Shown one piece after another: positions 32,477-60,415 of a stretch of DNA of 64,000 bases. The stretch is from NCBI RefSeq assembly GCF_013409045.1, contig NZ_JACCBT010000001.1, positions 5,580,001-5,644,000 of the forward strand. The letters are read 5' to 3'. The first letter of the stretch is position 1. Each line of letters opens with the position of its first letter. Source of the stretch: Actinomadura citrea. Its GTDB lineage: Bacteria; Actinomycetota; Actinomycetes; Streptosporangiales; Streptosporangiaceae. The position numbers and the translations under genes are program-made. A model generated the notes under the pieces. The model was not told the origin of the DNA and did no database searches. It saw nothing but the letters and a program-made list of their open reading frames with translations.

Positions 32477-33004
32477 TCAGACGTAGTCGCGCCAGAACGG
32501 CACGGTGGCTTGAGGCGCCCAGTCTTCGGGGCGCTCGGGCCGAGGTTCTTCGAATTCCTGGCTGATGTAGTCGAGCAGGTCGGCGCCGTAGTAGATGATG
32601 TCGCTGCCCCAGATCGACAAGACCGGGTGGCCGAAGGTGCCGTGGCCTGCGGGCAAGAATCTGTGCCCATAGACGGGGATCATCTTCGGCACCTCGGCCA
32701 GTTGCGATCGTGCCAGGTCGACGGCCGCTTCGCTGGAATCCGGCCGTTCGCCCCAGGCGGGTTGCCAGTGCCCGTGCTGGACGTCCTGGAGCAGGAAGTC
32801 GATCGGCCAGTTGAGGTGTCGGCGGAGTTCGTCGGGGTCGCTGTTGCGCCAGTCCGGCCATGGTCTTTCCCACGCGTAGCTGGTGCCCGGCTTCTCTTCC
32901 CTGGGTTCGTGGACGGGCAGTCCGGCGGCGAGGAAGGCGCGGTGGTCGTTGGCGAACTCAAATCCGTACTCGTGCTCGATGCGAGTGAACTCTGCTTCGG
33001 TCAA
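32477..33004 (-). CDS. SMI1/KNR4 (SUKH) family protein, 5' end altered by IS
   Basis: From LTEAEFTRIEHEYGFEFANDHRAFLAAGLPV the protein matches the SUKH fold (start strand-helix and W-rich loop TSYAWERPWPDWRNSDPDEL). HLNWPIDFLLQDVQHG and FGHPVLSIWGSDIIYYGADLLDYI complete the domain to the stop at 32477. SUKH proteins are commonly immunity proteins against polymorphic toxins. No normal start is visible: upstream the frame enters an IS5 fragment, though a TTG at 33004 with GGAGG nearby could serve. It is 175 residues, close to family size. Confidence 0.7.
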   Translation of the reverse strand: MTEAEFTRIEHEYGFEFANDHRAFLAAGLPVHEPREEKPGTSYAWERPWPDWRNSDPDELRRHLNWPIDFLLQDVQHGHWQPAWGERPDSSEAAVDLARSQLAEVPKMIPVYGHRFLPAGHGTFGHPVLSIWGSDIIYYGADLLDYISQEFEEPRPERPEDWAPQATVPFWRDYV

Positions 33005-33009
33005 GCCTC

Positions 33010-33327
33010 CCTGGACCAGCCAGCTGCCCGGCGGCGTGCAATTCCTCCAGCAACAGGCGGTGCAGCCGCTCCCACACGGCCGGCCTGGTGCCACTCGGCC
33101 AACCGCCGCCAGCACGTCATCCCCGACCCGAACCCCAGCTCCTGCGGCAGGAACTCCCACCGGATCCCTGTGTGCAGCACGAACAAGATCCCGCACAACA
33201 CCTTGCGGTCGTCCAACCGCCTGCGGCCAGTGTGGCGTTTGCGGCACTCGATCTTCGGCAGCAGCGGCTCGACCCGCTCCCACAGACTGTCGGGCACGAT
33301 CCACGGGGGTAGCTCACCCTTAAGCAC
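33010..33327 (-). mobile_element. IS5-family transposase N-terminal fragment
   Basis: Reads WIVPDSLWERVEPLLPKIE, RRRLDDRKVLCGILFVLHTGIRWEFLPQELGFGSGMTCWRRL, the DUF4096 N-terminus of IS5-group transposases. The frame shifts near 33085 and continues AVWERLHRLLLEELHAAGQL, then stops matching at the SUKH gene. The catalytic half is missing, so it is not active. Confidence 0.75.
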
Positions 33328-33994: not shown

Positions 33995-34629
33995 CTCGCA
34001 GCGCCCTCATTGTCTGGATCCCGGCTCGTCATCACCACCGGCAAGAAGAAAGGCCAGCACCCCTCGGCCGCCACCGTGATGCGCATGCTCCGCGAACACG
34101 ACCAACGGGCAGCGACGATGGCCGATCCCTGACCGTCACCATTAGTCACCACAACTACGCACAGCTACTTTTCACTTGGCCGCACCGACCCGAGCGGAGG
34201 GCCAGCGAGCGAGCTGCTCGACGTCGGCAGGGTCGATCTCGCTGACGAGCTCGGGTCCCACATCCACCATCACCACGGCGCACTCTGCTCCGGTCAGATC
34301 CCGTGTTTCCACGGTAGGGCGCGCACCGGGGCGGGGGCCTGCGATTCCCAGCATGGCCTGGGCTCAGACGCAGACGGCCAGCCGCGCGGATGTCCGGCCG
34401 CAGACGATGAGCTCCGGCCTGCGGCCGGACTCCTCCTTTTCCTTCCGACCCGAGGCCGGACGGTACGCGGGCCGCAGAACCCGTCAAGGGCGCCTACGGC
34501 GTCGCTACGCGGTGGCCTACGGCCACCCTTGACAGAACCATGCCTGATGATCGCGTCCATCGCCCATCGGTGTTCAACCGGCTTGTGTCCGCTTGCGGCG
34601 GGCGCCGACTGGCGGGACCTCCTGCGCGG
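33995..34629. other. Region with no firm gene
   Basis: A plus-strand piece LVITTGKKKGQHPSAATVMRML (34020-34130, ending at TGA) and a minus-strand ORF at 34172-34354 (60 residues, GPELVSEIDPADVEQLARWPS) look coding-like but have weak or no start signals. Neither is supported enough to call. Confidence 0.3.
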
Positions 34630-35118
34630 TCAGGGCGCCGGGAGTCTGCGGACGGCCACGCCGATGAACCGGTCGGCGGGGACGAATCCGTAGTCGCGGG
34701 AATCCCAGCTGGTGGGCGCGTTGTCGCCCAGCACGACGAGGGCACCCGGCGGCACGGTCGTCTCCCGCGTCTCCCGCAGGCACGGCACCCGGTCCACCGG
34801 GACGGGATCACCGGCCACCGCGATCGCCCGCTTGACGAGCAGGAGCCCGTCCGGGTGGACCCGCATGACCGGGGTCTCCTCGTCCGGGGCGGGGGCATCG
34901 GGGGGCGGCGCGTCCAGCGTCGGCGGCTGGATCCGCACCACCACGATCTGGCCCGCGCGCACCCGCCGGGTCCGGCGGACGAGGAGCCGGTCGCCGGAGT
35001 GGAGCGTCGGCTCCATGCTGGGTCCGTCGACCGTGGTGATCAGGTACCGCAGGCGCACCCAGCCGGTGAGGGCGCCGGACACCAGGAGCACGCCTGCCGC
35101 GGCGGCGAGCCACATCAT
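34630..35118 (-). CDS. S26-family signal peptidase I
   Basis: A 162-residue protein from ATG 35118, overlapping the stop of the ABC fragment (coupling). One N-terminal membrane helix (LAAAAGVLLVSGALTGWVRL) is followed by the catalytic Ser in VDGPSMEPTL, the Lys in LLVKRAIAVAGD and the box GDNAPTSWDSRDYGFV. It would cleave signal or leader peptides outside the membrane. The context with a Cys-rich peptide and MauE/ABC remains suggests a dedicated processing peptidase, not the housekeeping one. Confidence 0.88.
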   Translation of the reverse strand: MMWLAAAAGVLLVSGALTGWVRLRYLITTVDGPSMEPTLHSGDRLLVRRTRRVRAGQIVVVRIQPPTLDAPPPDAPAPDEETPVMRVHPDGLLLVKRAIAVAGDPVPVDRVPCLRETRETTVPPGALVVLGDNAPTSWDSRDYGFVPADRFIGVAVRRLPAP

Positions 35119-35459
35119 CCGATGTCCTCGGAAGGCCGCGGAGCCTCCTGGTATCCGGCCGCCTGCAGCCGGAACAGGCGGGCGTAGTGGCCGCCCGCCG
35201 CCAGCAGCGTCTCGTGCGTGCCGAGCTCGGCCACGCGCCCGCCGTCGAGGATCGCGATGAGCCCGGCGTCCCGTACGGCGCTGAGCCGATGCGAGATCAG
35301 CAGGCTGGTCCCGCCGGACCGGTGGAGGCGCATCTGGGCGTGGACCTCGTGCTCGGCCTCGGGGTCGAGACCGGAGCTGGGCTCGTCCAGGATCATCAGG
35401 TCCCGGCCGTCGCGGACGAAGGCACGGGCCAGAGCGAGGCGCTGCACGCCCCCGCGCAC
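35115..35459 (-). pseudogene. ABC transporter ATP-binding subunit, C-terminal fragment
   Basis: The frame begins within the signature region (GGVQRLALARAF) and continues with Walker B LMILDEPSSGLD, the D-loop, H-loop LLISHRLSAVRDA and a C-terminal HETLLAAGGHYARLFRLQAAGYQ. This last part is typical of ABC exporters with fused membrane domain. The membrane domain and Walker A are gone; the frame is joined to the start of the MauE-like gene near 35458. Confidence 0.8.
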
Positions 35460-35578
35460 GCGGGCACCAGCGCGGGGACGGACCTGGCGAAGCCGTCAAA
35501 GCCGCGGAGTTTGGACACGGCCGACACGGCGAAGACCAGCCCGATCAGGCAGGCGCAGCCGATCCGCACGAGTTCCAT
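35396..35578 (-). pseudogene. MauE-like membrane protein, N-terminal fragment
   Basis: ATG 35578 has GAGGAG five bases upstream. The first 38 residues, MELVRIGCACLIGLVFAVSAVSKLRG (in part) and FDGFARSVPAL, match the first helix and loop of MauE/DoxX-type redox-linked membrane proteins. The frame then crosses into the ABC gene antiphase and ends. Three helices are missing. Confidence 0.7.
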
Positions 35579-35638
35579 CCGCACTCCTCAGGGGGACCCG
35601 CACGGGCGGCATCAAGCCGCCGCCCGTGCAGGGGAGGC

Positions 35639-35803
35639 TCACGGCGATCCGCAAGCACCGATGACGTAGTGGCGGCACTGGCCGTCGCAGCAGGTCTTGC
35701 GGTAGTACAGGCCGCCGGAGCAGTAGTAGTAGTTCTTGCAGGCGGCGGACGCGGTGGCCTTGGGGGCCACGCGCGCCAGCAGGCGGTCGACGAGACGGGT
35801 CAT
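35639..35803 (-). CDS. Cysteine-rich small peptide (54 aa)
   Basis: ATG 35803 follows GAGGAG by six bases. The first 20 residues (MTRLVDRLLARVAPKATASA) form a leader-like amphipathic part. The rest has six Cys (positions 22, 28, 38, 39, 43, 51) and many Tyr (NYYYC, LYYRKTCCDGQC). It looks like a disulfide-rich secreted peptide or redox-active small subunit. Downstream on the same strand are MauE, ABC exporter and signal peptidase genes or remains. MauE-type proteins help form disulfides in small subunits such as the methylamine dehydrogenase light chain. Confidence 0.7.
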   Translation of the reverse strand: MTRLVDRLLARVAPKATASAACKNYYYCSGGLYYRKTCCDGQCRHYVIGACGSP

Positions 35804-36272
35804 GCGTGTCTCCTCTCCCCCGGCCGTCGGAGGCCGTGGGCAGCGATCATGATTCGGACCAACCGGATTACAGCACACTGAGGCCGCGATTGCCCCAAAA
35901 TGATCATTTCTTTCGCTGGCGTGTTCGGCCCGGCCAGGCCAAGTCTGCGGCCCACCGCTTTCCTCCCATGCGACCCACACGCCGGTCACGCCGTCGCGCG
36001 TCCGTGGGTTTCCGCACACCATGCCTGTGGCGCGGGGGTGATGGAGATCCTCCACGATGTCGCCGTCCGTTGGCTCGTACTTGACGTAGCTGGCCGCCCC
36101 GCATCTACCCGGGCACGATGACCGGCTCGCCCCACATCGCGTATGGTCCGCCGACCATGTCGGCGTACCCCAACGGAAAGCGCCGACTCGCACCGGGCCG
36201 CAAGATTCTCAAGGCAGCCAACATGGCTTTCGCCGCCGACCTCGACCGGCCCCGGATGGCACACCCAGGATG
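35804..36272. other. Region left of the first tRNA fragment
   Basis: Contains the promoter of the Cys-rich peptide gene. A plus-strand ORF at 36118-36273 (51 residues) and a minus-strand stretch reading YVKYEPTDGDIVEDL could be remains; neither has a good start. Confidence 0.3.
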
Positions 36273-36363
36273 ACACGAGATCGCGCCGTGGATAAGGCTC
36301 TGACCTGCGGAAAGTTGGGGTGGGCGATACTGGGTTCGAACCAGTGGCCTCTTCGGTGTGAAC
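36273..36363. repeat. Partial tRNA-Val 3' copy B (putative attachment site)
   Basis: This 91-base segment aligns without gaps to 60296-60386, the 3' part of the intact tRNA-Val gene plus flank, with six mismatches by eye. It holds the T-arm, acceptor strand and most of the anticodon arm, and stops within the anticodon region. This is what site-specific integration at a tRNA 3' end leaves behind. Confidence 0.8.
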
Positions 36364-36839: not shown

Positions 36840-37226
36840 GTGTAGGCGTCACCCGCTGACCTGCCTCCTGCCGTCGCTGGTCTGCGCTGTTCCGTCCGAA
36901 GACCCAGCGGTGGGCGAAGAACACGATCGTGAGGAACCCGTTGGGCGCCTCTACCCCCACCCTCCATGGATGATCCCCGCCACCTTCGGTTCGGAGGGGT
37001 GGACGACCAGGCCGGTCTCCTCTTTCAGTTCCCGGGCTGCGGTGGCGGTCACGACTTCGCCCTTGTCGGCCTTGCCGATGGGGAGGTTCCAGTGCCGTGG
37101 AGCGAATCTGGCGTCGGGGCCGCGCTGGAGCAGCAGTACCTGTCCTTTGGCCTGGTCGTGAACGATGACGGCGGCGACGAGCAGGTTGTGGGAGTCCGGT
37201 GCCGGAGGCAGGGCGGATTCGGTCAC
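36840..37226 (-). pseudogene. NUDIX hydrolase, frameshifted
   Basis: GTG 37226 has GAGAGG upstream. The Nudix box is complete: GKADKGEVVTATAARELKEETG. Near 36958 the frame changes; the continuation APNGFLTIVFFAHRWVFGR lies in another frame. A single-base change would restore the gene. NUDIX enzymes hydrolyse nucleoside diphosphate derivatives. It starts just after an XRE/TPR-type remnant, a usual pairing in actinomycetes. Confidence 0.7.
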
Positions 37227-44051: not shown

Positions 44052-44094
44052 GTGGGCGATACTGGGTTCGAACCAGTGGCCTCTTCGGTGTGAA
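44052..44094. repeat. Partial tRNA-Val 3' copy C (putative attachment site)
   Basis: 43 bases identical by eye to the 3' end of tRNA-Val at 60344-60386 and to copy B. Flanks on either side differ from A and B except for a short CTCTGACCTG to the left. It lies between two gene blocks and marks the boundary of two integrated regions. Confidence 0.8.
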
Positions 44095-60295: not shown

Positions 60296-60343
60296 ACACG
60301 AGATCGCGCCGTTGACGGCGCTCTGACCTGCGGAAACTTGGGG

Positions 60344-60415
60344 TGGGCGATACTGGGTTCGAACCAGTGGCCTCTTCGGTGTGAACGAAGCGCTCTCCCA
60401 CTGAGCTAATCGCCC
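60344..60415 (-). tRNA. tRNA-Val (anticodon CAC)
   Basis: Starting at 60415 it reads GGGCGATTAGCTCAGTGGGA, then the anticodon stem CTTCG/CGAAG with loop TTCACAC (anticodon CAC) and the T-arm with GGTTCGAACC. The acceptor strands GGGCGAT/ATCGCCC pair fully. CCA is not encoded. The 3' half is repeated at 36273-36363 and 44052-44094, so it is the integration target. It is intact and should be functional. Confidence 0.93.

What the first reader, a model, noticed from the sequence alone, without database searches (positions are those of the whole stretch)
34630..35803. Cys-rich peptide, MauE, ABC exporter and signal peptidase cluster, damaged by a deletion
A 54-residue six-Cys peptide with a leader-like start, a disulfide-linked membrane protein, an exporter and a dedicated signal peptidase would form a peptide maturation and export system. 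Here one deletion joins MauE residue ~40 to the ABC signature motif near 35458. An intact version in relatives could be an undescribed disulfide-peptide system.
Basis: partly seen in the sequence, partly recalled or inferred. Interest (0 to 1): 0.65.

Follow-up and report, generated by a model that had tools for sequence, protein, structure and literature searches.

The report
Broken copy of disulfide-peptide export cluster
The window holds a wrecked copy of a gene set that makes, folds and exports small cysteine-rich peptides; intact versions sit elsewhere on the same chromosome and in many other actinomycetes, so the wreck is ordinary but points to a widespread, almost unstudied family of secreted peptides.

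Summary
On the minus strand lie a 54-aa six-Cys precursor (35639-35803), the first ~41 codons of MauE, the last ~110 residues of an ABC exporter and an intact S26 peptidase (34630-35118), joined at 35446-35456. Two corrections: a fifth gene, a TlpA-like thioredoxin, was lost at the joint; and it is not one deletion in place. The 3' part (34624-35445) differs by 1 base in 822 from an intact cluster at 0.24 Mb on the same chromosome, while the 5' part is only 81% identical to it and 87-88% identical to other species.

Intact relatives are plentiful: peptide-MauE-TlpA-ABC-S26, usually in that order, in Actinomadura, 27 genera of its GTDB family, Streptomyces, Embleya and Nonomuraea. Near 40 peptide hits, ABC occurred 37 times, TlpA 36, S26 33, MauE 31; 19 control stretches held only three generic ABC matches. 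112 of 113 precursors have an even number of Cys. A conserved leader ends in A-x-A before a variable core.

Most likely: ABC export of the precursor, S26 removal of the leader, oxidative folding by TlpA/MauE. The target is unknown. decRiPPter (2020) flagged mauE-linked candidate RiPP families in Streptomyces; I found no characterisation.

The parts
35639..35803 (-). Precursor peptide gene, 54 aa, 6 Cys; intact, with ribosome-binding site
   Evidence: relatives
35744..35803 (-). Leader-coding part (20 aa, ends ASA); 95-97% DNA identity to all five close copies
35642..35743 (-). Core-coding part with the six Cys; 68-90% DNA identity to the close copies
35804..35933 (-). Upstream region still homologous to intact clusters; holds a conserved block GTGTGCTGTAATCCGGTTGGTCCGA (35854-35878), promoter function inferred only
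35457..35578 (-). MauE, first ~41 codons only; runs out of frame after the joint
35446..35456 (.). Joint: 11 bp without a match in the intact paralogue; 2433 bp (rest of MauE, all of TlpA, ABC residues 1 to ~493) missing
35115..35445 (-). ABC exporter, last ~110 residues; Walker A and the membrane domain are gone, so non-functional
34630..35118 (-). S26 signal peptidase, 162 aa, intact, protein identical to that of the intact cluster at 0.24 Mb
34624..35445 (-). Tract with 1 mismatch in 822 bp to G000:C1:237804-238625 (the intact cluster of the same chromosome): recent copying or gene conversion

Best explanation
The window feature is a decayed, mosaic copy of a five-gene system: precursor peptide, MauE, TlpA-like thioredoxin, ABC exporter, S26 peptidase. 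In intact copies the precursor carries a conserved, only weakly hydrophobic leader (M-x-R-L-x-D-R-L-L-x-R-x-x-P-K-x-x-A-x-A) and a variable core with an even number of cysteines. The most likely pathway is: the exporter recognises the leader and moves the precursor across the membrane; the membrane-anchored S26 peptidase cuts after A-x-A; the thioredoxin, re-oxidised by MauE, forms three or four disulfides; the product is released as a small, disulfide-stapled peptide, probably used against competitors. Gene content, order, leader/core pattern, Cys parity and the cleavage motif are shown; the order of steps, the disulfides and the use are inferred. In the window the exporter, thioredoxin and MauE are dead, but the precursor and peptidase frames are intact, so the precursor could still be matured in trans by the intact cluster at 0.24 Mb, whose own precursor leader differs at 2 of 20 residues.
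For: Intact clusters: own chromosome at 237.8-241.4 kb, all five genes; a second paralogous cluster at 5.311-5.315 Mb. Distribution: 22 of 149 relatives with the window peptide as query; 89 of 250 genomes and 27 of 68 genera of the family with the profile. Neighbourhood test: near 40 peptide hits ABC 37, TlpA 36, S26 33, MauE 31; 19 control stretches from the same genomes: 3 generic ABC matches and nothing else; with a strict ABC cut-off 36 vs 0, all five genes in 25 of 40. Reverse test starting from the ABC protein, not the peptide: 20 loci, MauE 20, TlpA 20, S26 16, peptide 15. Named cases: Streptomyces clavuligerus plasmid pF1D18A (two precursors, MauE, thioredoxin-like, ABC, S26), S. nigrescens, Embleya, Nonomuraea gerenzanensis. 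Even Cys in 112 of 113 precursors, 69 of 70 non-redundant cores, none in the first 16 residues. A-x-A just before the first Cys in 89 of 113, small-x-A in 108. Up to seven precursors around one machinery (locus L135). Intact MauE 87.3 bits vs cut-off 27; thioredoxin 25.2 vs 23.5; exporter has ABC_tran and a weak ABC_membrane match, no C39 peptidase match.
Against: No product, disulfide or activity has been shown. Some clusters lack a local MauE or ABC gene, so these are either supplied in trans or dispensable. The core divergence includes synonymous sites (pS 0.34 vs 0.07 in the leader), which fits exchange of cores by recombination and gives no proof of positive selection. No immunity gene was identified. 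Whether the window precursor is transcribed is unknown.
Confidence: 0.75

Rival explanations
1. The peptide is a small subunit or cofactor-bearing protein of a redox enzyme, matured like the methylamine dehydrogenase light chain, with MauE and the thioredoxin (MauD-like) forming its disulfides.
For: MauE is shared with mau clusters (Pfam MauE 87.3 bits), and decRiPPter recalls the proposed role of MauE in disulfide formation of the MADH beta-subunit.
Against: None of 33 precursors matches the Pfam methylamine dehydrogenase light chain family at E 0.1. No conserved residues outside the Cys in the core: cores vary in length, spacing and sequence. Several different precursors share one machinery. 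No recurrent enzyme subunit gene was noticed in the clusters, though this was not searched systematically.
Confidence: 0.08
2. The secreted peptide is a signal or developmental peptide of the producer rather than an antagonist.
For: Paralogous clusters in one genome; a conserved upstream block in all copies of the close group. Nothing here separates signal from weapon.
Against: Strong core variability between close relatives, core exchange and tandem precursor arrays of up to seven fit diversifying antagonists better than a signal that must match a receptor.
Confidence: 0.2
3. The core is a carbohydrate-binding (chitin- or wall-binding) module, for example antifungal, related to CBM_14/peritrophin.
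For: CBM_14 matches 4 of 33 precursors at E<=0.1, best 20.5 bits, E 5e-4. The AlphaFold2 model gives the core as three beta-strands with block pLDDT 83-87.
Against: All scores are below Pfam's gathering score of 22.1; only one subgroup matches; Foldseek finds no PDB match better than E 0.22, and the profile finds no PDB sequence.
Confidence: 0.1
4. History of the window copy: a simple deletion inside a formerly intact cluster, or alternatively an assembly artefact joining two copies.
For: The order of the remaining pieces is that of intact clusters and the joint is clean; the genome is a single contig, but the reads cannot be seen.
Against: 1 mismatch in 822 bp to the right part but 95% in the MauE start and 68% in the core to the same paralogue: one deletion cannot give this. 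The tract ends just past the S26 stop and at the joint, which suggests copying or conversion from 0.24 Mb. The flanks are full of 40-125 bp fragments of other loci, so rearrangement is common here.
Confidence: 0.25

Closest known systems
decRiPPter candidate families with mauE and mauD homologues in Streptomyces (Kloosterman et al. 2020, PMC7794033)
   Same: MauE, in one family also MauD, next to a Cys-rich candidate precursor, with transporter and peptidase; proposed to act on the precursor; actinomycetes
   Different: Predicted only, precursors with at least 8 Cys, 3 families in Streptomyces; the leader consensus, A-x-A/S26 step and the spread described here are not in the text I could read. 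Its Table S2 could not be read, so identity of the families is not tested
Methylamine dehydrogenase maturation (MauE, MauD)
   Same: MauE plus a thioredoxin-like protein next to a Cys-rich exported polypeptide
   Different: No match to the light chain; ABC exporter and S26 peptidase instead of Tat export (the Tat part is from general knowledge); small variable peptides
Actifensins, defensin-like bacteriocins of Actinomyces (PMC6989792)
   Same: Leader plus a 6-Cys, three-disulfide core, ABC genes nearby, strong core diversity, several structural genes in some operons
   Different: 32-aa leader with a GA motif; gene set with a subtilisin-like protease and no MauE/TlpA/S26 reported in the text read
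Sublancin-type systems (ABC exporter with thiol oxidoreductases BdbA/BdbB), from general knowledge
   Same: Logic: leader-guided ABC export plus dedicated disulfide enzymes
   Different: Sublancin exporter carries a C39 peptidase and the leader ends in a double glycine; here an S26 enzyme and A-x-A

Membership tests
RiPP-like leader/core precursor system | Precursor with conserved leader and variable core | tested here: met
   Leader DNA 92-97%, core 60-94% in the close group; D6 and A20 invariant in 43 diverse precursors
RiPP-like leader/core precursor system | Co-encoded maturation enzymes | tested here: met
RiPP-like leader/core precursor system | Leader removed and core chemically modified | not testable with these tools
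   A-x-A motif and even Cys are indirect only
Double-glycine bacteriocins with C39-peptidase ABC exporters | C39 domain on the exporter | tested here: not met
   602-aa exporter matches only ABC_tran and ABC_membrane among transport domains, no C39
Double-glycine bacteriocins with C39-peptidase ABC exporters | Leader ending in GG/GA/GS | tested here: not met
   Leaders end in A-x-A or small-x-A in 108 of 113
Ordinary Sec-secreted Cys-rich peptides | Leader with a hydrophobic core | tested here: not met
   Best 10-residue Kyte-Doolittle mean in the leader: median 0.95; above 1.8 in 7 of 113
Methylamine dehydrogenase system | Light chain (MauA) homologue | tested here: not met
decRiPPter mauE candidate families | MauE homologue beside a Cys-rich precursor in an actinomycete | tested here: met
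decRiPPter mauE candidate families | Precursor with at least 8 Cys | tested here: inconclusive
   24 of 113 have 8 or more; the window and most others have 6
decRiPPter mauE candidate families | Precursor sequence homology | not tested
CBM_14 / peritrophin | Score above the Pfam gathering score | tested here: not met
   Best 20.5 vs 22.1 bits
S26 signal peptidase (P0004) | Family score above cut-off and Ser/Lys motifs | tested here: met
   76.4 bits vs 22.9; TIGR02227 75.9 vs 47; Ser34 and Lys96 by motif

The most novel reading that the evidence does not exclude
A large actinomycete family of disulfide-stapled secreted peptides, made by one machinery (leader-guided ABC export, A-x-A cut by a dedicated S26 peptidase, folding by TlpA/MauE), in which cores are exchanged by recombination between conserved leader and MauE sequences, and in which broken clusters such as this one can persist as extra precursor genes served in trans.
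Probability: 0.35. Interest if true: 0.75.

Novelty: new variant of a known kind. Interest (0 to 1): 0.58.

Why it matters
If right, it defines a widespread source of small disulfide-rich peptides in genera already mined for antibiotics, with no Pfam or NCBIfam model that matches the precursor above cut-off. It also gives a concrete role to MauE outside methylamine metabolism, and a precursor rule (leader motif, A-x-A, even Cys) that makes the family easy to find and test, for instance in Streptomyces clavuligerus.

Tried and rejected
Pfam and NCBIfam on the peptide: only CBM_14 and DUF7327 below cut-off. PDB sequence profile: nothing. AlphaFold2 of the precursor: mean pLDDT 71.8, pTM 0.42, core three strands; Foldseek against PDB: nothing below E 0.2, so no fold claim. 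Phylum-wide draw with the first peptide profile: only the own genome among 396; this profile was too close to the Actinomadura type, since starting from the ABC protein found other families. The full alignment A1 could not be used for the named genome scan; a 9-sequence subset was used. pN/pS on the core: no sign of positive selection, both rates raised. Literature: eight searches; decRiPPter was the only paper found that links MauE to peptide precursors.

Full report
What is in the window. On the minus strand between 35803 and 34630 lie, in order, a 54-residue precursor with six cysteines, the start of a MauE gene, the end of an ABC exporter gene and a complete S26 peptidase gene. The precursor has a ribosome-binding site and an intact frame. 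MauE keeps about 41 of 168 codons and then leaves its frame. The exporter keeps about 110 of 602 residues, starting just after the LSGGQ signature, without Walker A or the membrane domain, and so cannot work. The peptidase is complete, with the expected Ser/Lys and GDN-DSR motifs.

The intact system elsewhere on the chromosome. The window lies at 5.58-5.64 Mb of an 8.99 Mb single-contig genome. The named relatives found (A. mexicana, A. fibrosa, A. rubrisoli and others) place it in Actinomadura. The same chromosome carries a complete cluster at 237.8-241.4 kb, precursor-MauE-thioredoxin-ABC-S26, and a more distant paralogous cluster at 5.311-5.315 Mb. Comparison shows that the window lacks 2433 bp: the rest of MauE, all of the thioredoxin gene and ABC residues 1 to about 493; 11 bp without a match lie at the joint.

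Not a simple deletion. Window 34624-35445 differs from the cluster at 0.24 Mb by one base in 822. On the other side of the joint the same comparison gives 95% in the MauE start, 68% in the core and 72% upstream; A. mexicana gives 94, 90 and 85%. Between species the body of the cluster differs by mostly 2-15% per 150-bp block. So the window copy is a mosaic: an older, divergent 5' part joined to a 3' part copied recently from, or converted by, the locus at 0.24 Mb. Which way the copying went cannot be decided here. The surroundings fit: the flanks contain 40-125 bp fragments of other chromosomal sites, and an exact 32-bp copy of the 3' half of tRNA-Val lies at 36331-36362, with another at 44063-44094 and the intact tRNA at 60342-60415, as expected for an integration hotspot.

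The system in relatives. With the window peptide as query, 22 of 149 relatives have a homologue. With a profile, 89 of 250 genomes and 27 of 68 genera of the family do. The neighbourhood was tested in two independent ways. Starting from 40 further peptide hits, homologues were found for ABC in 37, TlpA in 36, S26 in 33 and MauE in 31; in 19 stretches mostly 100-200 kb away in the same genomes only three generic ABC matches appeared. With a strict ABC cut-off the counts are 36 and 0, and all five genes are present in 25 of 40. Starting instead from the ABC protein (19 of 297 genomes of the class), 20 loci gave MauE 20, TlpA 20, S26 16 and peptide 15, including loci in two other families. Named examples are Streptomyces clavuligerus plasmid pF1D18A, where the annotation names MauE/DoxX, ABC and S26 and leaves two 'hypothetical proteins' that are the precursors, S. 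nigrescens, Embleya and Nonomuraea gerenzanensis. The commonest order is precursor-MauE-TlpA-ABC-S26 (28 of 80 loci with an ABC gene); others are permuted, and some lack a local MauE or ABC gene. In three of four genomes with ABC-less clusters (G030, G024, G036) another cluster of the same genome has the exporter, which makes service in trans plausible.

The precursor. 113 distinct precursors share a leader of about 20-28 residues with an x-D-R-L-L motif, only weakly hydrophobic, ending in A-x-A (89) or small-x-A (108) shortly before the first Cys. The core is 27-50 residues from the first Cys, rich in Tyr/Trp/Phe, with 4, 6, 8 or 10 Cys; only one has an odd number. Among 70 non-redundant cores 69 are even; with independent even odds this has probability 6e-20, although related sequences make that figure too small. 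Up to seven precursors surround one machinery. In the closest group the core is raised in synonymous as well as non-synonymous differences (pS 0.34 against 0.07 in the leader and 0.09 in MauE): cores look exchanged by recombination, not merely mutated. An AlphaFold2 model gives a leader helix and a three-stranded core, with moderate confidence and no PDB match.

How it most likely works. Shown: gene content, gene order, leader/core pattern, Cys parity, cleavage-like motif, absence of a C39 domain in the exporter. From family knowledge: S26 enzymes cut after A-x-A outside the membrane, thioredoxin-like TlpA proteins handle disulfides outside the membrane, MauE-type proteins are linked to disulfide formation of an exported subunit. 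Inferred: export of the precursor by leader recognition, cutting by S26, oxidation by TlpA with MauE re-oxidising it, release of a stapled peptide. A role against competitors is the best guess for the use, since cores diversify and multiply; no activity evidence exists.

Known or new. Neither Pfam nor NCBIfam has a model that matches the precursor above cut-off. decRiPPter reported three candidate families with mauE and one with mauD in Streptomyces, with precursors of at least eight Cys, as predictions. The system here is most likely the same broad kind, seen more widely and in more detail. I therefore call it a new variant of a known kind, with the reservation that the known kind itself is only predicted. 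The wrecked copy in the window is in itself ordinary.

Noticed in passing
window 36331-36362, 44063-44094, 60342-60415: Intact tRNA-Val (CAC) and two exact 32-bp copies of its 3' half: probable attachment-site duplications of stacked integrated elements; the peptide-cluster remnant lies just outside the distal copy.
   Followed up: partly
window 36938-37062, 36273-36363, 36084-36170, 34475-34539, 34025-34121: Short fragments (64-125 bp) 82-93% identical to other places of the chromosome: debris of rearrangement around the remnant.
   Followed up: partly
window 33001-33327, minus strand: ORF resembling the start of a transposase (DDRKVLCGILFVLHTGIRWEFLP...), by eye, truncated.
   Followed up: no
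L135 (G569:C28:345500-355500): Seven precursor genes around one TlpA-ABC-S26-MauE set.
   Followed up: partly
L042/L095 (Actinomadura syzygii): Second precursor with five Cys, the only odd count among 113, lacking the usual fifth Cys: probably a decaying copy.
   Followed up: no
L191-L193 (three genomes of another family): MauE-TlpA-ABC clusters with a differing leader (...AVKSVFAPVSAVRDCPPDC...) and no S26 gene close by, perhaps a sister system with another peptidase.
   Followed up: no
window 35854-35878, and the same place in L032-L035 and L092: Conserved block GTGTGCTGTAATCCGGTTGGTCCGA about 50-75 bp upstream of the precursor, perhaps a promoter or operator.
   Followed up: no
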